Assembly: GCA_961205875.1 (NCBI GenBank)
Contig: OY540820.1
Coordinates: 5,828,001 to 5,892,000, forward strand
DNA from: Sialis fuliginosa
Taxonomy: Eukaryota > Arthropoda > Insecta > Megaloptera > Sialidae
Direction of reading: 5' to 3'
DNA: 64,000 bases
The translations under genes and the position numbers were made by a program. Positions 28,272 through 62,714 of this stretch are shown one piece after another (within the stretch, counting starts at the first letter, position 1; every line of letters starts with the position of its first letter). The notes beneath the pieces were generated by a model that searched no databases, was not told where the DNA came from, and saw only the letters and a list, made by a program, of their open reading frames with translations.

Positions 28272-28512
28272 ATGTCTCCCAGACGCGGAAATCGAGAGGT
28301 TGAGGTAGCTAGCACCGGCGTGGACAGCGAGAGCAGCATGTCTTGCGAGCTCCAGGTCCCTACAGTCTCGGACGTTGTGTGGAGATACACGTGGAGAGTG
28401 CGTAGGTGGAACAAAGCGATCGCCAAACGCGACGTTTTGGACAGCCCCGTGTTCGCGTGCTCTGTTAACGGCGTCACGACGAACTGGCAACTGGGTATTA
28501 GATTCTGGAGAG
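28272..28512 (+). CDS. MATH-BTB protein (speckle-type POZ-like), exon 1 of 4
   Basis: Exon 1 of a 382-residue protein; the joined exons 28272-28512, 35559-35798, 39787-40320 and 40903-41036 total 1,149 nt including stop. It encodes a short polar N-terminus (MSPRRGN...) and the start of a MATH fold from about residue 35 ('VVWRYTWRV'). Proteins of this layout (SPOP, Drosophila roadkill) use MATH to bind substrates and BTB to bind cullin-3, so a ubiquitin-ligase adaptor role is inferred. The MATH is divergent from SPOP and orthology is not claimed. An in-frame ATG 102 nt upstream would add a hydrophobic leader. I prefer the later ATG because a good splice acceptor (ttctattgttccaatag, ending 28245) lies between the two, pointing to a 5' UTR exon junction. 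The donor is G|gtgagt. Confidence 0.85.
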
Positions 28513-28559
28513 GTGAGTGAATATTCAGTTCTTAAATTTAATTTATTTTGTAACTATAA

Positions 28560-29033
28560 GGCGGCTATTACACTATCAAATAAATATGTAAAAGATCTTT
28601 GACAAAGATTTGATCATATTTCTTTGATAAAATATGAGATTTTGTTCTATTACACTACATAAAATATTTGATAATATTTTCTCAATATTATCTAGGGATA
28701 TTTTCTTCTTTTTTGGTGCATTTTCATTATCAGTGCGTGGATGTTCGTCAGTTGACGCGATCGAGGTTTGAATTTACAACCGTGTATTGTGGTTTTTATA
28801 ATCAATAAGAAGATTATCATATAATACTGGATTTTGTTGATATTCATATATTAATAATTATATAACTGTAACTGTCAGTGATAACTTGGTAGTCGCCATT
28901 TTGTTTTTGACGTCAAAAAACTTTGATCAAATATAAGAGACTGTCATTAACTATGATCATATAAATATTATGAAGGTAAATATTATAAAAGTTTGCTTAT
29001 TATTTATATTTCTTTGATAGTGTAATAGCCGCC
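28560..29033. mobile_element. 474-bp Harbinger-like MITE in intron 1
   Basis: Terminal inverted repeats of 21 bp begin GGCGGCTATTACACTATCAA and are flanked by TAA on both sides (28557-28559 and 29034-29036). A 3-bp TAA/TTA duplication is typical of PIF/Harbinger. Inner 'tttgat' words repeat on both arms. Non-coding. It sits 47 bases after the exon 1 donor. Confidence 0.75.
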
Positions 29034-29139
29034 TAAGACAAGATCTTGGAATTTAAAAATATAAATTATAAAAAACATAAAGTAATATATTTCTGTAATT
29101 TTTTTTAAGTTGAATTATAACCCGGTATTAACTGGGCAT

Positions 29140-29495
29140 TTAAAATATAATTTTTATTTTGTTCATGTTTTTTCTCCAATAATGGCAAAGGTTAAACCAG
29201 TAATGAGCACACAGTGATGGACACTTGCTAATGATAAGTACTACGACACAAGAGTTATAAAAGAAAGATAATATAATAATTAATTAATAAATTATACTAA
29301 TAATTAGTTTAAATTTCCATCATTTTGACACCTACTAGCCGATTGTCATCAAATCACGCTGTAAGATAGTTAAATGTATATAGATTAATATTCAGAAATG
29401 GTAGTGATCAAATATCAACACATTTCTAATTCAGTACATTTAATTAAAAATTTGCCATTACTGGGGTCCTTGCCAAGACTGGTGCCACTACGTTA
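29140..29495 (+). repeat. Repeat R1, copy in intron 1
   Basis: Aligns with the 3' half of the 8,215 copy, from 'gttttttctccaataatgg' to 'aagactggtgcc', with small internal deletions. Confidence 0.7.
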
Positions 29496-30326
29496 CCTTT
29501 GTTACCATAAACTTAATAATTATATAAAATACACACATTAAGTTTATAAGTTATTATGTAGGTACAATATAAATATTATTAATTACTTTTATACTTTTGG
29601 AACATTTGTGGTTCATATTTAAAATCTCATTTACCATAAAACTAGTTTTGGAGACTTGTAACAAACAAATAAATATTTACGTGACGATGTCTCAAAAATC
29701 ATACAAAATACGCCCAAATATTTAAGAGGCGTGACTTAAATATATATATATATAAAGATATTTAAACCTTACATTAAACATTTCTTTATTCAATTATTCA
29801 AATCTAGAAATAGCCCCTGAATAACATATTACTGGTTTGTTTAAGGATGTATGGCAGGTATCTAATTTCAATGAGAAATAGTTGAAATTTGGAGAAGTTA
29901 CTTCTTTATAAATCTTAACATGAGTACCCACACAAAATTTCAAAAGGTTTTACAACATAGTTTCAAAGATATTATTTTTATAAATTAACATGGGCTCTTA
30001 TGGCAGAATGGTGTATTTACGGTTAAAGTCCAATAAAACACATGGTTCAAGCATCGAGAAAAATCTGAAATTTTCACAACATGTCACTTACATATTTAGC
30101 AACAAGTTTCATAAAAAAAATTATACACATACAGAACTAAATTGTGAGGAAAAAAATAATTATTGGTGAAAAATATTAAAAAAAAAAAAATGGCATACTG
30201 AAATGTAATGATTTGTTTTTATTACATATTTTTTCATATATCTAAGCATATGAAGTACTGATATTGTTATTTTCATTACATTTGTATGTTCCACATATTA
30301 TTATTAGTATAGTCAAATTAGATTTT

Positions 30327-33300
30327 GAGCGGAATTCTCTGGGAACAGCAAAATTTTTATGCCATAATGTAGGGGGGACATTGTAGTTTCACCACCCAAA
30401 AGTCCCACGAGCTAAACCTTGTGCTAACTCGGGGAGCCCCATTCAAAGTTGGATTTTGTGCAAATATTTGTTCATTTTTCTAGCTCATAAAAATACAGAT
30501 ATCTCGAGAACAAAAGTAGATATCGAAAAAAATTTTGCTGTTTTAGAATTGCTATAAAATACCCAACAATATGACTAAATAATATTAGAACCTATTCTCT
30601 AACATTTAGGTGTCACGTTCATTTGTTTATCAAAAATCGCTGTAATTTTATTGTTTTTTCAATTCCATACTTTTTCATTACATTATTAAGTATGAAAAAA
30701 AAATTGTTTTTTACTTTTTGTAATTTTTATCTTATTCTACGTTTAATTTCCTTTAAAAATCTGTCATGGATTTTGATCTAAAAAAATTGTGTGAACACGT
30801 AAATAAAATTTCAAAAAAGTATTATTTAGTTTGCAAATTAAATGAATGTTAAATTAACTGTATACGGTTTTTCAAAAACATTAAATATTTCATTAACCCG
30901 TCATACTATCTGCAAAACTTTAGGCATTTTGGAATCGCTATGAAATTTGAATAATATTATAGGTGCACAGAAAAAAATATTTGAACACTGTGAACATATA
31001 TGGGGCGGTTTTTTTAGGAAACTGCATAAAAATTACAGTCTATGAATTCATACATGGCTGTGCTCCTTTAAATAATTCCTAGTACTATGATGTCTGTTAC
31101 ATATATAGTGCCCATGCATGTACGTTTATATAAAAAAAATGTCCGCGATTAAACCATTCAAAAAAAAATTACAGTCATTTTAACTTGTGAACTGAATTTT
31201 ATTTTTTCGTAATTTGTTATAATCGAGATATCTCCTAAACAAATGAAGATACATGCAAATACCATTACATCAAAATACGTAAAATTTTATGTGCTACAAC
31301 TTTTATGAAAAGTATTTTTTGTTATCTTTATTCTAAATGGTTAATAAATCTACGCGAAAATTAATTTTTAGAGGGGCCGACGAAAAATAAGCTAGTTTTG
31401 ATTTTTTTCTGGCCCTAATGTGAAGAATTGATAAAAAATAAGTAACACTAATTTTAGAGGATAATAATTTGCAAACTCTCTGAAAATTAAATTTTAATAA
31501 GATTATATATAACAGAAATATTTAATTTTGAAGTGCTCAAAAAAATGACATTTTACATCAAGATTGTTGTACAGAGTAAGCTATGGAAATTAACACTGTG
31601 CAGAGAAAAACATTGACGAAGTTAAAAATTGGGAAAGATGTTACCAAATATCTATAGTTTGATATAATAAACAATTATCAGTAATAAAATTTTTAATTCA
31701 ACCCCTATATTGAAAAAACTACCCTTAATGTATAACTCTCAACTTATGTTCTCGATTTTCATGAAAACGGTATATCGCACGAAAAAAATGTATGGAACTA
31801 ATTGTGTAGAGAGTAAAATTTACAATTGATAACAAATAGCATATTAATTAAGTTATTTAAAATTACGGCGTTATTCAAAGGTTTATAAACGAGGCCAAAA
31901 AACATATTAAATGTTGGTTATTTCTGAAAGGCACAGACATTTTTTTGCCAAACTTTGTAAATATAAACTACTTACACTATTATATAGTCACACCAAATTC
32001 CCAATCGATCAATGCCACAGAAAAAAAGTTATAGCCAGTTTAATTTTTTTTTAAATTATCAAAAGTGTGAATTTTGTAATATTGATATGCTGTTATAATC
32101 AAAATTTACGAAAATTTTTCATAACATTATAAGTCTCTTAAACATTCTGATATTTATTTGAAATTTCACAATAATGATGGCTGTAGTTTAGTTTCAATAC
32201 CTAGTAATTAACAATTGTGTATGTCAAATTATAGGGTTTTTACAGCTCTATAAGTGCGCAGAAATGAAAAGTGTTAATTTTAAATTCCAAAACAAAAATA
32301 TTCAAAAATTGTTTACACCAAAATGAAGATAAAACTAGAACTTTTACATATTTCATAAAATTATTAGATCCCTTTAGTTTTTAAATGATAACATAATATC
32401 AATGTGCTATTTAATCTACCCTATGACACCAACCCCTAAATTAAGGTTATGAGGAATATATGAAGTTGGTCCAGAAAGTTTCAAAAATCTTTTTAAGGTC
32501 TTACGAACAAATATAGAGATTGTCAATTCATCAATTAAATTTAAAAAAAATTGAGTATAGATACCCCAAATCGTCAAAATTAAAAATTAAATATTTTTGA
32601 ATTCTAAACATTGATTTTATCTATAATTATTACATTCGCTTTGTTTTAACTTGTAGTGAACCTACTTTCAAGGGTTAACATCTCCCATAAAATTTAAAAA
32701 AAAATTTATAGATCAGGAATAGTTTAACATATTTTGCATTCAATATTTTGTTATTTTAACGAATAAATCCATTTTTTATGTCATCTCATTTAATTAATTA
32801 ATTTAATTTCAATAAAAACGGTGTAGTGAATTGAAATGTTAAAAAATAGGTAGTTGTTAATATTATATTTTGCTTTTATTGATAAATATACAATCTCTAT
32901 ATTTGTTCGTAAGACCTTATAAAGATTTTTTAAACTTTCTGAACCAACTTCATATATTCCTCATAACCTTAATTTAGGGGTTGGTGTCATAGGGTAAATT
33001 AAATAGCACATTGATATTATGTTATCATTTCAAAACTAAAGGGATCTAATAATTTTATGAAATATGTAAAAGTTCTAGTTTTATCTTCATTTTGGTGTAA
33101 ACAATTTTTGAATATTTTTGTTTTGGAATTTAAAATTAACACTTTTCATTTCTGCGCACTTATAGAGCTGTAAAAACCCTATAATTTGACATACACAATT
33201 GTTAATTACTAGGTATTGAAACTAAACTACAGCCATCATTATTGTGAAATTTCAAATAAATATCAGAATGTTTAAGAGACTTATAATGTTATGAAAAATT

Positions 33301-35086
33301 TTCGTAAATTTTGATTATAACAGCATATCAATATTACAAAATTCACACTTTTGATAATTTAAAAAAAAATTAAACTGGCTATAACTTTTTTTCTGTGGCA
33401 TTGATCGATTGGGAATTTGGTGTGACTATATAATAGTGTAAGTAGTTTATATTTACAAAGTTTGGCAAAAAAATGTCTGTGCCTTTCAGAAATAACCAAC
33501 ATTTAATATGTTTTTTGGCCTCGTTTATAAACCTTTGAATAACGCCGTAATTTTAAATAACTTAATTAATATGCTATTTGTTATCAATTGTAAATTTTAC
33601 TCTCTACACAATTAGTTCCATACATTTTTTTCGTGCGATATACCGTTTTCATGAAAATCGAGAACATAAGTTGAGAGTTATACATTAAGGGTAGTTTTTT
33701 CAATATAGGGGTTGAATTAAAAATTTTATTACTGATAATTGTTTATTATATCAAACTATAGATATTTGGTAACATCTTTCCCAATTTTTAACTTCGTCAA
33801 TGTTTTTCTCTGCACAGTGTTAATTTCCATAGCTTACTCTGTACAACAATCTTGATGTAAAATGTCATTTTTTTGAGCACTTCAAAATTAAATATTTCTG
33901 TTATATATAATCTTATTAAAATTTAATTTTCAGAGAGTTTGCAAATTATTATCCTCTAAAATTAGTGTTACTTATTTTTTATCAATTCTTCACATTAGGG
34001 CCAGAAAAAAATCAAAACTAGCTTATTTTTCGTCGGCCCCTCTAAAAATTAATTTTCGCGTAGATTTATTAACCATTTAGAATAAAGATAACAAAAAATA
34101 CTTTTCATAAAAGTTGTAGCACATAAAATTTTACGTATTTTGATGTAATGGTATTTGCATGTATCTTCATTTGTTTAGGAGATATCTCGATTATAACAAA
34201 TTACGAAAAAATAAAATTCAGTTCACAAGTTAAAATGACTGTAATTTTTTTTTGAATGGTTTAATCGCGGACATTTTTTTTATATAAACGTACATGCATG
34301 GGCACTATATATGTAACAGACATCATAGTACTAGGAATTATTTAAAGGAGCACAGCCATGTATGAATTCATAGACTGTAATTTTTATGCAGTTTCCTAAA
34401 AAAACCGCCCCATATATGTTCACAGTGTTCAAATATTTTTTTCTGTGCACCTATAATATTATTCAAATTTCATAGCGATTCCAAAATGCCTAAAGTTTTG
34501 CAGATAGTATGACGGGTTAATGAAATATTTAATGTTTTTGAAAAACCGTATACAGTTAATTTAACATTCATTTAATTTGCAAACTAAATAATACTTTTTT
34601 GAAATTTTATTTACGTGTTCACACAATTTTTTTAGATCAAAATCCATGACAGATTTTTAAAGGAAATTAAACGTAGAATAAGATAAAAATTACAAAAAGT
34701 AAAAAACAATTTTTTTTTCATACTTAATAATGTAATGAAAAAGTATGGAATTGAAAAAACAATAAAATTACAGCGATTTTTGATAAACAAATGAACGTGA
34801 CACCTAAATGTTAGAGAATAGGTTCTAATATTATTTAGTCATATTGTTGGGTATTTTATAGCAATTCTAAAACAGCAAAATTTTTTTCGATATCTACTTT
34901 TGTTCTCGAGATATCTGTATTTTTATGAGCTAGAAAAATGAACAAATATTTGCACAAAATCCAACTTTGAATGGGGCTCCCCGAGTTAGCACAAGGTTTA
35001 GCTCGTGGGACTTTTGGGTGGTGAAACTACAATGTCCCCCCTACATTATGGCATAAAAATTTTGCTGTTCCCAGAGAATTCCGCTC
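30327..35086. repeat. 4.76-kb palindrome: two 2,196-bp arms, 368-bp spacer
   Basis: The left arm (30,327-32,522) is the reverse complement of the right arm (32,891-35,086). Paired positions sum to 65,413 from end to end, so there is no net insertion or deletion. Comparing line by line, I found no mismatch from 30,327 to about 32,390. Five substitutions lie between about 32,391 and 32,495, next to the spacer. No long open frame exists anywhere in it. It occupies two thirds of intron 1 of the MATH-BTB gene and would fold into a long double-stranded RNA if transcribed. Outside the arms, 'tagtatagt' occurs 20-30 bases beyond each end in inverse orientation. This could mark the true termini of a foldback transposon with a TA target. 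An assembly or read-chimera artefact is the main alternative. Confidence 0.95.
32523..32890. other. Palindrome spacer
   Basis: 368 bases of unique AT-rich sequence between the palindrome arms. It has no open frame or recognisable element and would be the loop of the hairpin. Confidence 0.9.
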
Positions 35087-35558
35087 GACGTGTTTTTTGA
35101 GTTATTTTTACTATACTATATGTGTTATTTAAAAATATTTTAATTTATGTCATTTATAACAATAAAATACTTCTTTTGTTTTTATATCTGACTGATGAAT
35201 TCAGAATAAAATTTTTTCGTATTATCAACACAAATATTAATTTTTTAGCTAAAATTCTAAAATAACAGTCAATAATAAGAAATAAGGTTTTAAACAAAAG
35301 TATTTTTATAGTTTATGTAGTATTTAAACCAATTTGACTTTCTTATAAACATTTAAAGTGAATAATTCATAATTTGATTTTGATCGTTCATTGCATCTAG
35401 ATTTACATTATTTTTGACTCAGACTGTACATACATCCTTAATCGTATGTTTTTATAAAATATTAATACTCTGTAATCTGATCTGAAAAATTGATGAAAAC
35501 CGCATTAAAATCGGTTCAGTATGTAATTAGAGATTATAAAGGGATACTTTATTTGTAG

Positions 35559-35798
35559 GCCCTAACGGTAAGCGGGTCTCTAACCCATTGGCTGTTTGCG
35601 TATCGCTGGTTTCATGCGAGGGCCCAAGCTGTGGCGAGCAGGCCCGCGTCCGGTTCCAGGTCGGAGTCCGGGATGCTACCATCAGCCATTGGGACCAGTG
35701 CCCGATGGGACGCGTTGCTGTGCATCTCACTAACACAGCTTCCATGCTCAGTGTGGGTTACAATGATGTCAGGCTGGAGGACAGACACATTGATAAAG
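35559..35798 (+). CDS. MATH-BTB protein, exon 2 of 4
   Basis: Encodes residues 81-160, the second part of the MATH domain (starting GPNGKRVSNPLAV, ending DVRLEDRHIDK). The acceptor 'tttatttgtag' and donor G|gttggt keep phase 1 on both sides, so the exon is 240 nt with no frame change. Base composition is much richer in GC than the flanking intron. A retroposon tail ('ttaaaatcggttcagtatg') abuts the acceptor region at about 35,505. Several overlapping frames on both strands are shadows of this exon. Confidence 0.85.
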
Positions 35799-39786: not shown

Positions 39787-40320
39787 ATGGCGATGTATAC
39801 ATAATGGTGAAATTACAAATGGTCCCTACGGAAGTAGAGCGTCATACGCTATCTCAGGATTTGGCCCGCCTGATGGAAGCTCCTGAGGATGACTTCCAGA
39901 GCACTGACACTGAAATACGTAGTTCCTCAGGGCGTTTATTCAACGCGCACAGCCATATTATCATCGCTAGATCATCGATGCTCGCTACAATGATGCGCAA
40001 AGAACAGGGCGATGCTAAATTCAAGATAGACCTAACGGAACTCCCTGATGAAATCGTGCAAGAACTTTTGAGGTATGTCTACACCGATAAGGTGGAGAAC
40101 TTGGAAAGTCTTGCACCTAGACTTCTGACGCTAGCCCATAGATACTATCTTGATGGATTGACGGAACTATGTGAAAGAGCTATTGTAGAGACTCTTACGC
40201 CAAGTACTGTAGGTAATGTTCTGATGTTAGCAGACCAGTGTCAGTGTGAGCCGTTAAAGAAAGCAGCTCTTGCGTACTGCGAGGAAACTATGACCCATCA
40301 GCACCAGAATAAGCCGTTGA
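39787..40320 (+). CDS. MATH-BTB protein, exon 3 of 4 (BTB/POZ domain)
   Basis: Encodes residues 161-338. The exon finishes the MATH fold (DGDVYIMVKLQMVP). The BTB domain follows at about 197-295, with the classic 'LFNAHSHIIIARSSMLATMM' segment (F-x-A-H-x(3)-ixARS core). After it come helices like the 3-box/BACK region that contacts cullin-3 ('VGNVLMLADQCQCEPLKKAA'). The acceptor is 'ttatttccag' and the donor A|gtaagt. The open frame runs four bases past the donor before a stop, so retention of intron 3 would truncate the protein. Confidence 0.92.
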
Positions 40321-53610: not shown

Positions 53611-54747
53611 TCACTTCTTCTGTCTCTTATCGACTAACTTGACGTCATGAACCGTAAGATCGTGCGGTGACTTTGCCGCAAACTTAATCACCGCCTGCGT
53701 CGTCACTTGTGGCACGTGTCTTAAATCCAGCCTCATCAGATTGGGACTCCTTGCCAGATGATCCAGACTCACTTCCGTGATCAACTTGCATTGGCTCAAA
53801 TCCAAATTGACCAGTGCGTTTATTGAGCACAGCTGCGCGACCCCCGCATCTGATATCCGGGCACACGATGACAGGATCAGGTGCTTTATCTGGGGCAGGT
53901 ACTGGGCAACATATCGTAAAGCAACATCAGAGATATCCGTCCCCGATAAGTTCACGACTTTGAGATTCTTCAGCCTCGATGAGCTGTCGGTCAATCCTGG
54001 CCTTGAGTCTGTCGGAGGGCTGAGGATGTCTCTCAAGGCTCCATCGTTCAAGCCTGTAACGTGACTCAGATTCAGCTTTTGTAATGGGGGGCACATACAC
54101 GTCCGCAATGCTAGAACCGTCTGCACTTGAATTCCTTGCAAGCTGAGCTCTTTTAACGCGGGGAGGTGGCTTAAGAGCCAAGCTAGCTGTCTTCGTACAG
54201 TTCCTGTCCAATCGAGAATGAGCTTCTCTGGTTGTCGTCTCACAATTCCGCGTAGCATCGCGGCTGAAGGTTTGATGGGGCCGCTGAGATCCATCGTTTT
54301 CCACAGTTCCGGTTCTATCGTTAACCGAGCCCACGTTTTACAAACCAAAGAACACACGAACAACTGACCTGGGTTGAGGTATTTAAATACAGGGATTAAT
54401 ATCCGTTTGTCAAGAGTTAGACTGCCGGGTGGTGCTGAGGGAGGGGGGGATAAGGGAGCAGGCCGCACAACACATATCGGTTTACGAAGCGTCTTTGTAG
54501 AGTTGCTCTCGAGCTGGTGCGCAAGTTGAGCACGTTGAGCGTATCTTGCAGGAGCTTCGGTCGTCTCCTCGCTGCACCGCCTCTTGCTGGGGGGAGACTG
54601 GAGCCCCTCTTTCGTCTTGTCCTCAGGCACGGCCACAGCGCTGGGACCTGTCGTGCCTTCATTTTCTGAATCGACGTCAACGGCGTCAGAGCTGATGGAC
54701 ATCCGACGAATGTCGGAAGATTTCTGACGTGCTCGGAAATGTCTCGG
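53611..54747 (-). CDS. Kdm2: Lysine demethylase KDM2, last exon (F-box and leucine-rich repeats)
   Basis: Encodes visible residues 623-1000 and the stop. In order: a basic then acidic low-complexity linker; the F-box at about 732-777 ('LILIPVFKYLNPGQLF'-like, here RILIPVFKYLNPGQLFVCSL, and W-A-R...LW); then six or so AMN1-type leucine-rich repeats ('LKVVNLSGTDISDVAL', 'LVNLDLSQCKLITEVSLDHL', 'LMRLDLRHV'). The F-box links the protein to SKP1-cullin complexes in the family. The acceptor is 'atatttacag'. The whole C-terminal third is one exon. Several frames on both strands over it are shadows. Confidence 0.95.
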   Translation of the reverse strand, partial: PRHFRARQKSSDIRRMSISSDAVDVDSENEGTTGPSAVAVPEDKTKEGLQSPPSKRRCSEETTEAPARYAQRAQLAHQLESNSTKTLRKPICVVRPAPLSPPPSAPPGSLTLDKRILIPVFKYLNPGQLFVCSLVCKTWARLTIEPELWKTMDLSGPIKPSAAMLRGIVRRQPEKLILDWTGTVRRQLAWLLSHLPALKELSLQGIQVQTVLALRTCMCPPLQKLNLSHVTGLNDGALRDILSPPTDSRPGLTDSSSRLKNLKVVNLSGTDISDVALRYVAQYLPQIKHLILSSCARISDAGVAQLCSINALVNLDLSQCKLITEVSLDHLARSPNLMRLDLRHVPQVTTQAVIKFAAKSPHDLTVHDVKLVDKRQKK

Positions 54748-54806
54748 CTGTAAATATTTTATAAAAATAATTCTTATTTTCCCTTGACTACATACACAAT
54801 ATTTAC

Positions 54807-55044
54807 CTTATAGTCTGTATTTTTACCGGCCTTACAGCAAGGTGGACATTCCCAGCTATTGGGCATGTCTTCGTTAACTACTCCCGTCACTCCGGAGCAT
54901 ATTTTCTGCACACATGCCGGATGCGCTATTTCATAACACACTGAACATTCCATCAGACTACTCGGGCCTTCGTTCCGCGCCGCTGCAGCCCCTTTTTGCA
55001 ATGGGACAACCGGAGTTTGTCCCCATCCATCCAATCCGCAATGC
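54807..55044 (-). CDS. Kdm2: KDM2, PHD-finger exon
   Basis: Encodes visible residues 543-622: a C4HC3 zinc finger (HCGLDGWGQ..., 'SLMECSVCYEIAHPACV', 'SWECPPCCKAGK'), the PHD finger that follows CXXC in KDM2A/B. The acceptor is 'taaattaaag' and the donor AAG|gtaaat. The R codon is split across the junction with the CXXC exon. Confidence 0.94.
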
Positions 55045-55110
55045 CTTTAATAAATTAAATTAATTAAATAAAAAAGATGATTTTTCCCACACTATTTCCG
55101 AGTGAATTAC

Positions 55111-55776
55111 CTGCAAGCAGCTGTTACTGGCAGCATCGGTTGCAAACACTGCCTCATGTTACATGTCTGTTTAGCCCTACCAGGGCCACCAAACTTTACC
55201 ATGTCCAGACAGAAGCTGCATTCGCCACAGTCATTTCGCTGGCACGCCTCGCACTTCTTACAGCGCGTCCGCCTGCGCCTTGGCCCACCGCTGCTTCCCC
55301 CCTTGTCGGATCCACCACCACCACCAGTACTCGGACGTCCGGAATTTGAACCACCACTAGTCCGATTGACATAGTTGCGTTGTAGAGGCACACGAGGGAT
55401 GCTGTTCTTCTCATCAGGAGCTGTAACAACGTTAACATCTTCTATTAACGGTATTTTAAGTCCTACCGACATTGCTGACTTACGTTTAAGTATAGGCAAC
55501 CCAGTAATTGCCAGTTCCCTATTATCGTTTCTGTGGAGTCCCACCAGTGTCCTGACATCAGTGATAAGCGCGATTGGGTCTTTGATCAGTTCAGGTACGT
55601 TTTTCTTGTTTGCCGGTAGGCCGTGAAGATACATTACTATCTCCTTGAGTCCGTGGAGCTCTTGCTTCGTTAGGTGAATATGAAGCCCATCTATGTTAGG
55701 CTTTGTATCGCAGTCGGGGTTACTTGATAAGTGAGATCTGTTTATAAGGCAGTGAACGTAACGTTCGAGAACGTAC
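55111..55776 (-). CDS. Kdm2: KDM2, exon with JmjC C-terminal helices, linker and CXXC zinc finger
   Basis: Encodes visible residues 322-543. '[16 protein letters not shown]' and '[20 protein letters not shown]' are helices that follow the JmjC barrel. A glycine/serine-rich linker comes next. The CXXC finger at about 493-540 carries '[20 protein letters not shown]' and the KFGG signature. In KDM2 proteins this finger binds unmethylated CpG DNA and recruits the enzyme. The acceptor is 'tttatttcag' and the donor G|gtaatt. Confidence 0.95.
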
Positions 55777-55854
55777 CTGAAATAAACTCAATGAATTAAA
55801 AATGTGTTTTTTTCTCATTAAAAAGATCAGAAGAAAACCTGAGAGGCTAGATAA

Positions 55855-56576
55855 TAGAGATCAGATCGGACCTTAAAATCGTGGCCCGATCCGATCCGAA
55901 ACTTTTTTTTTTCGGCCCGGTCCGATCCGGTCCGATTTATAAGATTTTATATTAAGGTCCGATCCGACCCGGTCCGAACATTACAAACAAAAATTAAGCC
56001 CGGTCCGATCCGATCCGAATTTCGGACCGGGTATTTCGGGCCGGCCCGAATCGAACTGATCTAAGAAAACTGTATTGTATTAATAATATAATTAATCGAT
56101 GTTTAGTAAACAATTAAATCACTGATTATATACGTTCAATTAGAGTATTTAATTTCTTTTATAAAGAAAATAAGTAAAACTAATGAAAAATATTAAAAAT
56201 ACCTCGGTGCAGGGTTTTCATAAAAAATACTAGAGATAAAATGTACTATTGCGTATAGGTTAGGTTATTTCTTTTTTTATGAAATTATAAGCCAAATTAG
56301 TAAAATTATAATTTTGTTAATAATATATAAAATAATAATAAAAGTAATTGTAAGTAAAAGTTTTGTTTTGAAAAAATAATATATTTAGTTATTCTTTAAG
56401 TCCCCGGCCCAAGGTTCGGACAGGTCCGATCCGACCCGGTCTGATTTATACTAAGGTCCGATCCGATCCGGCCCGAACATTACAAACAAAAATTAAGCCC
56501 GGTCCGATCCGATCCGAAGTTCGGACCGGGATAAATTCGGATTAGTTAGGGCCGGCCCGGCCCGAACTGATCTCTA
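55855..56576. mobile_element. 722-bp hAT MITE with exact 8-bp target duplication in a Kdm2 intron
   Basis: The ends are TAGAGATCAGATCGG and the inverse of TAGAGATCAGTTCGG. The exact duplication ctagataa lies on both sides (55847-55854, 56577-56584). About 200 bp at each end is packed with repeats of 'ggtccgatccga' and 'ggcccg', resembling hAT subterminal binding arrays. The centre is AT-rich. Non-coding. Confidence 0.88.
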
Positions 56577-56691
56577 CTAGATAATAAGAGAATGTTCATA
56601 AACCATAACGTTTTTATGGGAAAGAGAAGTACAGCTACTTAAAGGTTACTAAAGTTGGTGGAAAAGAAAAAGGAAAATTATTTAAACTTAC

Positions 56692-57030
56692 CAGAGCATC
56701 TCTGTAAAGAAGGGGTACCTAAATTTCTGTGGAACCTTAGTCCCGTCTTCCACCTGCGCTATTTGGAGCTGCTTTTCTATCCCGTAACTATGAAGGAAGT
56801 TACCTCCAAACACCAGAGAGTCCATGGGAGTGTAGACTGCATGTATCCAGCCAGTAGGAATGAAGAAAGTGTTACCCGATTTAAGTAAAACGCGGCTACA
56901 TTTCTCGACAGTATCACCGAAGAAAACGTCTGTCTGTTTACCCGATAAAACCCACTGTTCGTACAGTTTCAGGTTCAGACTTGTAGGGGGTATCAGCCAG
57001 AATACTTTAATGCCCTTCAGTATGTGGTAC
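56692..57030 (-). CDS. Kdm2: KDM2, JmjC exon 2
   Basis: Encodes visible residues 208-321, the second half of the JmjC catalytic domain. K216 ('[14 protein letters not shown]') matches the 2-oxoglutarate-binding lysine and H271 ('[20 protein letters not shown]') is the third iron ligand. Both are intact, so an active Fe(II)/2-oxoglutarate demethylase (H3K36 in the family) is expected. The acceptor is 'ccgcaacag' and the donor G|gtaagt. The plus-strand frames here are shadows. Confidence 0.95.
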
Positions 57031-57582
57031 CTGTTGCGGAAAAATTTAGGGATAAAATATTTCTTAAGTTTTCAATTTTTTTAGTAAATTGAAATTTATA
57101 TTTATTATCTGCAGCAAGCAAAAATTGCAATAAAAAAAACAAAAAAAACAATGCAATTTTATTTCGTTTTTAATACTGCGAAAAATTAAAATCAAAGTAC
57201 AATCTGTAAAAAAAAGCAGAGATTTCAATCAATAAAAACTTTTTTTTAAATTTATATCCGTAGCTAAATTACACAGATTTTGAACTTCACCCATTTTTTA
57301 AATCTAGAATACTACTACAAATTATAGGGCACTTAATGACGCGTTAGGAACTTTAAGCATACAAAATTTGGAGTCCTCTTATATTAAAAATTAAAAAAAA
57401 ATCTCTGAAAATTTCATAATTAATAAAAAGAAAAATAGCCCCCTCCTGCTTGAGCTCCCCTCCTTCTCTTGAGGTGGGGCTTAACGCAGTCTCGTAATTT
57501 TCGTATCTTAGAGCATCAATAAATCTAAAAACGAAGCTGGAATACAAGCTATAGTAAAAAAATATAAAAATACAAGACTCAC

Positions 57583-57828: not shown

Positions 57829-58320
57829 CTGCAAAAAATATTTTTAAATTTGAAAGTAAGATACTTTTCAAACGCTCCCAATTGCACGCCATGTTGCGTG
57901 ACGTCATAATTCAGTATTGAAATGTCAGTCAATGCTTAAATATACAAGTGTTAACGATAAACATGGAGAACGCATGAAAAATAATAAGTTGTAAATACTG
58001 TTTCGTGCCTTGTGGTAATAATTCAACTTGCAAAACTCCTAGAAAAAAATTTATAACTGTGCCAGAAGGAAACCAAAGAAAAAGTTAAAAGTAAGGTTAT
58101 TCTATATAGTTGCAGAATACAATTTGTGACGTCACAAACCCTTAAATCAATCACGTCGCGTTTTAAATGCGAGCTGATTTTTAGGAATTTTAATATTAAA
58201 TAATTTAAAATTGAGCAATAAAAAAACAATTTGTTCAATACTATTATTATTTTTTAGCATAATCTTTGCAATTAAGTAACAAAAAAGGTATGTATGTCAA
58301 AAATTTCCGGATTACTCTAT

Positions 58321-58792
58321 TATAGTTATAATAATTAATACTGTATATACAGGCTGGTCCGGTTTGGGATACATATATTTTAAGAGCTGATTCTTTGGCT
58401 CATTGTGAGTAAAAAATTGTGCAAGAAGGTAGGTTCTATCTTCAACACCCTCTGAGCTACAGTATGTTTAAAAACTTCCTTAGAGTAGTAATTACAAACA
58501 AAGATCATCTCATAACTTCCAAAGTAACGTAACTAGAGCATCCACAATGAGCCAGTTATAATTATAATAATTAATACTGTACATACAGGGTGGTCCGGTT
58601 TGGGATACATATATTTTAGGAGCTGATTCTTTGGCTCATTGTGAGTAAAATATTGTACGAGAAGGTGGGGTCTATCTTCAACACCCTCTGAGCTACAGTA
58701 TGTTTAAAAACTTCCTTAGAGTAATAATTACAAACAAAGATCATCTCATAACTTCCAAAGTAACGTAACTAGAGCAACCACAATGAGCCAGT
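58321..58792. repeat. Tandem duplication, two 236-bp units, Kdm2 intron
   Basis: Units 58,321-58,556 and 58,557-58,792 are nearly identical ('ggtccggtttgggatacata' in each). Each unit contains 'tggctcattgtg' and, about 150 bases on, its inverse 'cacaatgagcca', so each can fold into a hairpin. Confidence 0.88.
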
Positions 58793-61999: not shown

Positions 62000-62714
62000 C
62001 AGAGCCGGCCTTTGCGATTCTGGCGCCCCAGGCGAGATTTTTTTTGACCCCCCCCCCCCTCCGCCACAGTGACGATCATTAAAAATTATCCGCACAAAAA
62101 ATAAAAAAAAAACGTGAGAAAATTATCGAAATGAATAAAATGTATAGAAAAATGAAAAATACCATTAAATACACTTGTTATTAATTCATTAGTGTAATAT
62201 AATAATATAATATAACATATAATTGATAAATAATATACAATATAACTAAAATTATATAAAAGATTTCTTCCTGGCTTTCATGTCTGCAAAATTATCGATT
62301 GCTGTCTCAAAATTGAGGTTTGCTACAACTTTATTTTCAATTAAAAGAATAGCCAAATTATTCAACCTATCTTCTATCATAGCCGATCGCAAATAAGTTT
62401 TTATCAATTTTAATTTACTAAAACTTCTTTCACCACTATGTACACTAACCGGAATTGTTACAAGAATCCGCAAAGCCACCCACAGATTTGGCACTGTGCT
62501 TTTCAAGTTTTGTAAAAAAAAATTTAATAAATAATTTATTTTTGATATTAATTAAGCATTTTATTAAGTAAAATGAATTATTTTGCAGAAAAAATCAAAA
62601 CTATTATTCAAAAAATATATACAGCTTAAATTTGGCGCCCTAGAACAGAACATAGAAAAAAAGTTTAAAACAATTGGCGCCCCAGGCTGTCGCCTGGCCG
62701 TTCGGCCGGCCCTG
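62000..62714. mobile_element. 715-bp hAT element carrying a transposase remnant
   Basis: The terminal inverted repeats are CAGAGCCGGCC and CAGGGCCGGCC (inverse at the right), each followed internally by 'ggcgcc' words. The 8-bp flanks are tgtgtgag and tgtgtgtg, a 7-of-8 duplication within a (GT)n target. It carries a C12 run near the left end and the hAT dimerisation frame on the minus strand. Confidence 0.85.
62252..62506 (-). pseudogene. hAT transposase C-terminal dimerisation fragment (ZMYM/TTF type)
   Basis: An 84-codon frame reads 'ILVTIPVSVHSGERSFSKLK', then 'LIKTYLRSAMIEDRLNNLAI' and a final 'KARKK'. This matches the conserved dimerisation region at the end of hAT transposases (usual motif P-V-S-x-A-E-R-S-F-S-K-L-K, here S-G-E-R). 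The catalytic and DNA-binding parts are missing, so it is a deletion derivative. Composition is like its AT-rich surroundings. Confidence 0.88.

What the first reader, a model, noticed from the sequence alone, without database searches (positions are those of the whole stretch)
30327..35086. Near-perfect 4.76-kb palindrome inside an intron: candidate long hairpin RNA locus
Two 2,196-bp arms around a 368-bp spacer lie in intron 1 of a MATH-BTB gene, with no long open frame. Transcription of the host gene would yield a double-stranded RNA of about 2.2 kb, the type of precursor known to feed endogenous siRNA production in insects (hairpin RNA loci). I recognise no transposon family in the arms. 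If real, this is either a young giant foldback element or a new hairpin-RNA locus.
Basis: partly seen in the sequence, partly recalled or inferred. Interest (0 to 1): 0.88.

Follow-up and report, generated by a model that had tools for sequence, protein, structure and literature searches.

The report
Young multi-copy foldback transposon, 4.8 kb
The giant palindrome is real, but it is one of dozens of copies of a recently active jumping DNA element with no coding sequence found in it; its two arms stay nearly identical and its middle segment sits in either orientation in different copies.

Summary
The palindrome is confirmed: arms 30327-32539 and 32874-35086, 2,213 bp, 9 mismatches, all in the inner 158 bp. 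It lies in the first coding intron of a BTB gene. It is not a single locus. In the window's own genome (392 Mb) the arm matches 23 loci, with 40 of 188 candidates scored, and 40 pairs of element ends lie within 12 kb of each other. Comparing 21 copies gives the true ends, TAGTATAGT..., just outside the palindrome: the element is 30305-35118 (4,814 bp). A 3-bp target duplication flanks 17 of 21 copies and a 4-bp one 3 more. Three copies on three contigs differ by 0-1 base. So this is a young foldback DNA transposon, apparently non-autonomous, nested in an abundant repeat. Two features go beyond an ordinary foldback: arms mostly change together except at their inner edges, and the middle is inverted relative to the ends in 5 of 18 scorable copies. 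The transposase source was not found. The hairpin-RNA reading could not be tested; a dedicated hpRNA locus is unlikely, TE-derived siRNA stays open.

The parts
30302..30304 (.). left target-site duplication, TAT
   Evidence: 3-bp repeats outside TAGTATAGT ends in 17 of 21 copies
30305..30326 (+). A end of the element (22 bp, TAGTATAGTCAAATTAGATTTT)
   Evidence: shared by copies with differing flanks; 57 genome matches of this end plus GAGCGG with up to 3 mismatches, 0 for the reversed control pattern
30327..32539 (+). left arm (outer 2,055 bp identical to the right arm)
32540..32873 (.). spacer; its orientation relative to the A/B ends differs between copies
32874..35086 (-). right arm
35087..35118 (-). 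B end of the element (32 bp, reads TAGTATAGTAAAAATAACTCAAAAAACACGTC inwards)
   Evidence: 57 genome matches of its first 30 bases with up to 3 mismatches, 0 for the reversed control pattern
35119..35121 (.). right target-site duplication, TAT
29841..30304 (+). left part of a high-copy TTAA-ended repeat into which the element inserted
   Evidence: TTAAGGATGTATG inverted at 35429-35441; 40 near-full-length matches incl. the window's own, 40 of 1,021 candidates scored
35122..35441 (+). presumed right part of the same TTAA-ended repeat
   Evidence: ends in the inverted TTAAGGATGTATG; continuity across the insertion not tested (queries unanswered)
28272..28512 (+). host gene, first coding exon
   Evidence: open joined frame, GT donor
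35559..35798 (+). host gene, second coding exon
   Evidence: open joined frame, AG/GT borders
39787..40318 (+). host gene, third coding exon with BTB domain

Best explanation
A foldback DNA transposon without coding capacity, 4,814 bp, about 92% inverted repeat. Shown: dispersed copies with fixed ends (TAGTATAGT), 3-bp (sometimes 4-bp) target duplications, and virtually identical copies on different contigs, hence recent mobility. Shown in this assembly: the two arms of a copy share most lineage changes, while the inner edges keep separate left and right histories; the middle occurs in both orientations. Inferred: a transposase encoded elsewhere acts on the 9-bp ends; fold-back pairing or recombination between arms copies one arm onto the other (conversion) and at times crosses over, flipping the middle. 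Inferred: when the host gene is transcribed the intron can fold into a ~2.2-kb dsRNA, which may be diced as TE siRNA by-product.
For: Copies: 45 arm matches at 23 loci, 40 of 188 candidates scored; 40 pairs of ends within 12 kb from 114 end matches, 29 of them 4.70-4.85 kb. Ends and target duplication: 21 copies; 3-bp repeat in 17, 4-bp in 3, none in L023; mismatched left/right controls 56 of 420 for 3 bp; binomial p 5e-12. Youth: window vs L009 vs L010 differ by 0-1 of 4,814 bases. Homogenisation: 18 copies, 61 of 99 changes private to one copy are in both arms, and 86 of 114 shared by two or more copies are always in both; median arm-arm divergence 0.41% vs 3.0% between copies (21 copies); in 19 copies arm-arm distance is no larger than to the nearest other copy in 13 for the outer arm (4 of them ties at zero) but in 3 for the inner edge. 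Flips: 5 of 18 scorable A/B copies; L014 vs L015 194 differences directly, 14 with the core inverted; L026 vs L027 204 vs 15. L023 has two B ends and 335 bp of flank also inverted.
Against: No transposase tied to these ends was found: of 150 DDE_3 matches (150 of 454 candidates scored) the nearest to any of the 114 ends is 40 kb away, and 0 of 6 fetched Tc1-like loci hold the TAGTATAG motif; other transposase families did not complete. Arms are not always homogenised: 38 of 99 private changes and 44 of 213 polymorphic columns are one-arm only; L018 has 1.9% and L020 4.0% arm divergence; only 8 of 19 copies have their two outer arms as strict sisters. Shared lineage changes could have arisen in a source copy, so the time of homogenisation is open. 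Flips rest on one assembly, and L016 is called on a shortened spacer.
Confidence: 0.9

Rival explanations
1. A dedicated hairpin-RNA locus: the host-gene intron is kept because its ~2.2-kb dsRNA yields siRNAs against a target.
For: A 2,055-bp perfect stem inside an intron of an apparent gene. Known D. simulans hpRNAs include one with arms homologous to a TE (hp-ODox2; PMC10317233 passages).
Against: The same sequence sits at 23 or more loci; the window copy differs from two others by 1 base, so nothing marks this locus as special. No Pfam match at E 0.01 in 41 stop-free pieces of left flank, left arm and spacer edge; no match of the palindrome to the rest of the window beyond one 29-bp hit from the spacer. 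Small RNAs not examined.
Confidence: 0.05
2. No homogenisation: copies descend from several source elements that each happened to have identical arms, and arms simply have not had time to diverge.
For: The youngest copies are near-identical anyway; shared lineage changes can come from source elements.
Against: Lineages differ by about 2-4%, with both arms changed alike and no discordant copy at 146 of 213 outer polymorphic columns, which needs repeated arm copying in the source lineages; inner edges do not follow this.
Confidence: 0.1
3. The inverted middles are assembly errors caused by the 2.2-kb repeats, not real isomers.
For: Arms are long and nearly identical, a classic cause of orientation errors; the read type of this assembly is unknown to me.
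Against: Five of 18 copies, in different branches of the arm tree; the arms of L020 and L028 differ (4.0%, 0.8%), which can guide an assembler.
Confidence: 0.2
4. The palindrome itself is an inverted-read or assembly artefact.
For: One assembly only; no reads available.
Against: Recurs at 23 loci; 21 compared copies share the same ends, mostly with differing flanks and with target duplications; inner-edge mismatches recur at the same columns across copies.
Confidence: 0.01

Closest known systems
Galileo (P superfamily, foldback-like, Drosophila)
   Same: Very long inverted repeats, copies with arms only and no transposase; longest D. willistoni copy 9,021 bp with 4,246/4,680-bp arms; arms can recruit internal sequence (PMC4168063, passages).
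   Different: Galileo target duplications are 7-8 bp (same passages); here 3-4 bp, ends TAGTATAGT, and only trivial low-score tandem repeats.
Tetris / classic foldback elements (Drosophila)
   Same: Non-autonomous, arms up to 1,735 bp, middle without coding capacity; foldback structure suggested to arise repeatedly from different transposons (PMC4079207, passages).
   Different: Tetris arms carry ~220-bp tandem repeats and 8-10-bp target duplications (same passages); here neither.
Academ (AcademX) and Zator DNA transposons
   Same: AcademX makes 3- or 4-bp and Zator 3-bp target duplications (PMC10045372, passages), like the 3 bp in 17 and 4 bp in 3 of 21 copies here.
   Different: No transposase of either kind tied to these ends; the family searches for candidates did not complete. 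Only the duplication length was compared.
Drosophila hpRNA loci
   Same: Long inverted repeat able to give a dsRNA precursor (PMC10317233, passages).
   Different: Those are called from ~21-nt Dcr-2-dependent siRNAs of structured loci; here a dispersed repeat, no RNA data.

Membership tests
Foldback (long-TIR) DNA transposon | element made mostly of long terminal inverted repeats around a short non-coding middle | tested here: met
   2,213-bp arms, 334-bp spacer, 4,814 bp in all
Foldback (long-TIR) DNA transposon | dispersed copies with target-site duplications | tested here: met
   23 loci; 3-bp in 17, 4-bp in 3, none in 1 of 21 copies
Foldback (long-TIR) DNA transposon | internal tandem repeats in the arms (as in Tetris; in Drosophila FB by recall) | tested here: not met
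   only four low-score arrays of 20-22 bp in 29800-35500; not required of every foldback: in D. willistoni one Galileo copy alone has them
Tc1/mariner | 2-bp TA target duplication | tested here: not met
   TA is part of the end; a further 3 bp outside is duplicated in 17 of 21 against 56 of 420 in controls
Tc1/mariner | transposase (DDE_3) in or beside the element with the same ends | tested here: not met
   150 of 454 candidates scored; nearest is 40 kb from any of 114 ends; 0 of 6 fetched loci hold the TAGTATAG motif. PF03184 did not complete.
PIF/Harbinger | 3-bp TWA target duplication (recalled) | tested here: not met
   duplications include AGT, AAG, ATT, AAT, ATA, TAT
Galileo / P superfamily | 7-8-bp target duplication | tested here: not met
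   k=7 and k=8 identical in 0 of 21
AcademX / Zator | 3-4-bp (AcademX) or 3-bp (Zator) target duplication | tested here: met
   lengths from PMC10045372
AcademX / Zator | superfamily transposase in an autonomous partner | not tested
   searches for PF07592 and PF20231 (113, 116, 117, 122, 131) did not complete; that these Pfam families bear on Zator and Academ is recalled, the second uncertain
hpRNA (endo-siRNA) locus | highly structured locus | tested here: met
   2,055-bp uninterrupted stem
hpRNA (endo-siRNA) locus | ~21-nt Dcr-2-dependent siRNAs and primary transcript | not testable with these tools
   no RNA data held
hpRNA (endo-siRNA) locus | arms related to a target gene | tested here: inconclusive
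   no Pfam match in 41 stop-free pieces; no wider gene search made with the arms

The most novel reading that the evidence does not exclude
A mobile palindrome that maintains itself: arm-to-arm copying keeps about 2 kb of each arm nearly identical while crossovers flip its middle, giving inversion isomers like those of plastid inverted repeats (comparison recalled), in a nuclear transposon family of 40 or so copies and unassigned superfamily; transcribed copies could also serve as dsRNA sources.
Probability: 0.4. Interest if true: 0.6.

Novelty: new variant of a known kind. Interest (0 to 1): 0.45.

Why it matters
It gives a natural experiment on how long nuclear palindromes persist: dozens of copies with known ends, arms that are corrected over 2 kb but not at the inner edge, and both orientations of the middle. 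It could be used to measure arm-to-arm conversion and crossover rates in an animal genome, and to ask whether foldback transposons feed the siRNA pathway when they land in introns.

Tried and rejected
Ruled out or dropped: (1) 7-bp TTTTGAG as a target duplication around the palindrome edge: dropped once copies showed the real ends. (2) TA as target duplication with Tc1/mariner filing, my reading after (and in notes 49 and 83's predecessors): rejected. (3) The TTAA/GGATGTATG inverted pair as the element's own ends: it belongs to a separate high-copy repeat. (4) Global similarity of the two outer flanks: 47 of 300 shuffles reach it, 218 of 300 without the 15-bp pair. A 60-bp edge signal (10 of 1,000 shuffles) turned out to be the A and B ends. 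(5) Collections: arm in phages by distant BLAST, exact 38-base pattern in viral contigs, exact 22-base pattern in prokaryote contigs: no match; Rfam at gathering scores and ARAGORN: none. (6) The 7,025-bp C11 copy as an autonomous partner: the 1 kb probed does not match the element and shows a decayed cysteine-rich frame, best Pfam match below cut-off; nested insertion or relic, undecided. (7) Papers: nine searches seen as listings; passages of four papers were seen. None of these listings names this element, but Repbase and iMITEdb could not be searched, so novelty of the sequence family is not established.
Full report
OBSERVATION. The inverted repeat is present as described. BLAST within the window gives two 2,213-bp arms at 99.59% without gaps, 30327-32539 and 32874-35086. 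All 9 mismatches lie in the inner 158 bp; the outer 2,055 bp are identical. A single RNA strand folds with 2,201 nested palindrome pairs, 2,055 of them uninterrupted. I found no coding content: longest stop-free run 68 codons against about 78 in simulated sequence, and no Pfam match at E 0.01 for 41 stop-free pieces of 29841-32861.

CONTEXT. The element lies in the first coding intron (28513-35558) of a three-exon open frame of 337 aa on the + strand with a BTB domain. Upstream non-coding exons are unknown. Neighbouring genes are animal-type: CXXC and F-box/LRR exons on the minus strand and a p24-family exon. Of the 120 relatives listed for the F-box part, the one whose name carries an organism is a mosquito jmjC-domain histone demethylation protein 1-like. 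'Insect' is likely, not shown.

COPIES. When the whole-genome search answered, the arm matched 45 places at 23 loci in the 392-Mb genome, with 40 of 188 candidates scored. I fetched 20 of the other 22 loci in full and compared them with the window copy. All 21 have both arms; in L023 and L024 one arm carries an internal deletion.

ENDS AND TARGET SITE. Outside the GAGCGG edge of the palindrome the 21 copies have one of two short ends: A (22 bp) or B (32 bp), both starting TAGTATAGT. Nineteen copies have one of each; L012 and L023 have two B ends. Outside these, 17 of 21 copies have an exact 3-bp duplication and 3 of the other 4 a 4-bp one (L014, L017, L022; L023 has none), against 56 of 420 mismatched pairs for 3 bp (p 5e-12). 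So the element is 30305-35118 with TAT at 30302-30304 and 35119-35121. I first read TA as the duplication; one search corrected this.

NUMBER AND SIZE. Pattern searches with up to 3 mismatches found 57 B ends and 57 A ends, none for the reversed controls. Pairing neighbours within 12 kb gives 40 elements: 29 of 4.70-4.85 kb, 3 of 171-578 bp, 7 of 3.4-4.6 kb and one of 7,025 bp; 34 of 114 ends stay unpaired. All 30 B-end loci fetched, of 57 found, continue into the arm for about 1.5 kb, the extent of the fetched DNA. Of 10 B ends with a C variant, 4 were fetched (L059-L062); they match the arm over 88 to 510 bp at 79-92% best match and look like older, shortened relatives.

AGE. The window copy differs from L009 and L010, on other contigs, by 1 base in 4,814; L009 and L010 are identical; L011 differs by 6-7. 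Mobility is recent.

ARM HOMOGENISATION. Over 21 copies the median divergence between the two arms of one copy is 0.41%, between copies 3.0%. In the outer 2,070 alignment columns of 18 copies (L020, L023, L024 left out), 213 columns are polymorphic: 146 with both arms alike in every copy, 23 with some discordant copy, 44 with one-arm changes only. Of changes private to one copy, 61 are in both arms and 38 in one; of those shared by two or more copies, 86 are always in both arms and 28 not. In trees of 19 copies (L023, L024 left out) the arm-arm distance is no larger than that to the nearest other copy in 13 of 19 for the outer arm, 4 of these being ties at zero, and in 3 of 19 for the inner edge, where left and right ends mostly keep separate histories. 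Strict sister arms: 8 of 19 (outer). In 17 copies the inner 179 columns hold 101 arm differences and the outer 2,070 hold 52 (L018 and L020 also left out). Against this: L018 (1.9%) and L020 (4.0%) are not homogenised, and L014/L015 share several arm-specific differences. I infer arm-to-arm conversion in source copies and possibly in place; the data do not time it.

INVERSION ISOMERS. Relative to the A and B ends, the spacer of 5 of 18 scorable copies is inverted compared with the window copy (L014, L016, L020, L026, L028); 13 agree; L012 (two B ends) cannot be oriented and L023/L024 were not callable. L016 rests on a 143-bp spacer (84% vs 70%). Close relatives L014/L015 differ at 194 positions directly but 14 with the core inverted; L026/L027 204 versus 15. 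This is what crossing over between inverted arms gives. Assembly error is the main rival. L023 has, besides two B ends, 335 bp of flanking DNA in perfect inverted copy, as expected if copying ran past the element end, or from a fold-back assembly error.

NESTING. The left flank from 29841 is itself a high-copy repeat: 40 near-full-length matches including its own (40 of 1,021 candidates scored), 36 of them starting at its first base, 93-95% identical apart from itself. Its TTAAGGATGTATG end recurs inverted at 35429-35441 (0.5% of 2,000 shuffles give a TTAA-headed 13-bp pair, 5.5% any 13-bp pair). So the foldback sits inside what looks like a TTAA-ended repeat that ends 117 bp before exon 2; the foldback itself ends 440 bp before it. 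The empty-site query did not complete.

TRANSPOSASE. None found. DDE_3 matches are common (150 of 454 candidates scored), but the nearest to any of the 114 ends is 40 kb away. None of six fetched Tc1-like loci holds the TAGTATAG motif; the four with readable ends (L063, L064, L066, L067) begin TACAGT or TACACT. Searches for PF03184, PF07592 and PF20231 did not complete. Target duplications of 3-4 bp agree with AcademX (3-4 bp) and Zator (3 bp) as given in PMC10045372 (passages); membership is not claimed.

KNOWN KINDS. Foldback elements with long arms are known: a Galileo copy with 4.2- and 4.7-kb arms (PMC4168063 passages) and Tetris with arms up to 1.7 kb (PMC4079207 passages). The present family fits the kind, not those families (target duplication length, no tandem repeats of note). 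hpRNA loci are called from ~21-nt Dcr-2-dependent RNAs (PMC10317233 passages), which I could not test.

VERDICT. A real, young, mobile foldback transposon family; known in kind, unusual in the clarity of its arm correction and inversion isomers. The hairpin-RNA idea remains a testable by-product, not the explanation.

Noticed in passing
L023 (G000:C3:26899300-26905700): Copy with two B ends whose innermost 335 bp of flank on both sides are a perfect inverted copy: copying past the element end, or an assembly fold-back.
   Followed up: partly
L013 (C4) and L018 (C7): Two copies sit at the same point of homologous flanks (92% left, 83% right) while the elements differ by only 2.7%: either one insertion later duplicated with the element kept more alike, or two insertions at one site.
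   Followed up: partly
L069 (G000:C11:12986300-12987300): Inside a 7,025-bp pair of A and B ends: DNA unrelated to the element with a decayed cysteine-rich frame, best Pfam match below cut-off. Could be a nested insertion or a relic of a partner gene.
   Followed up: partly
G000, e.g. L063 (C1:42449000-42452000): A Tc1-like family with an intact 344-aa frame and the same DDE_3 score at nine places suggests another recently active transposon.
   Followed up: no
window 53614-57071, minus strand: Exons of a CXXC/F-box-LRR protein with a cupin match below cut-off; relatives named histone demethylase-like and F-box/LRR protein 10/11.
   Followed up: no
window 62255-62551, minus strand: hAT transposase C-terminal dimerisation fragment.
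   Followed up: no
window 58320-58791: Two tandem 236-bp copies, 95% identical.
   Followed up: no
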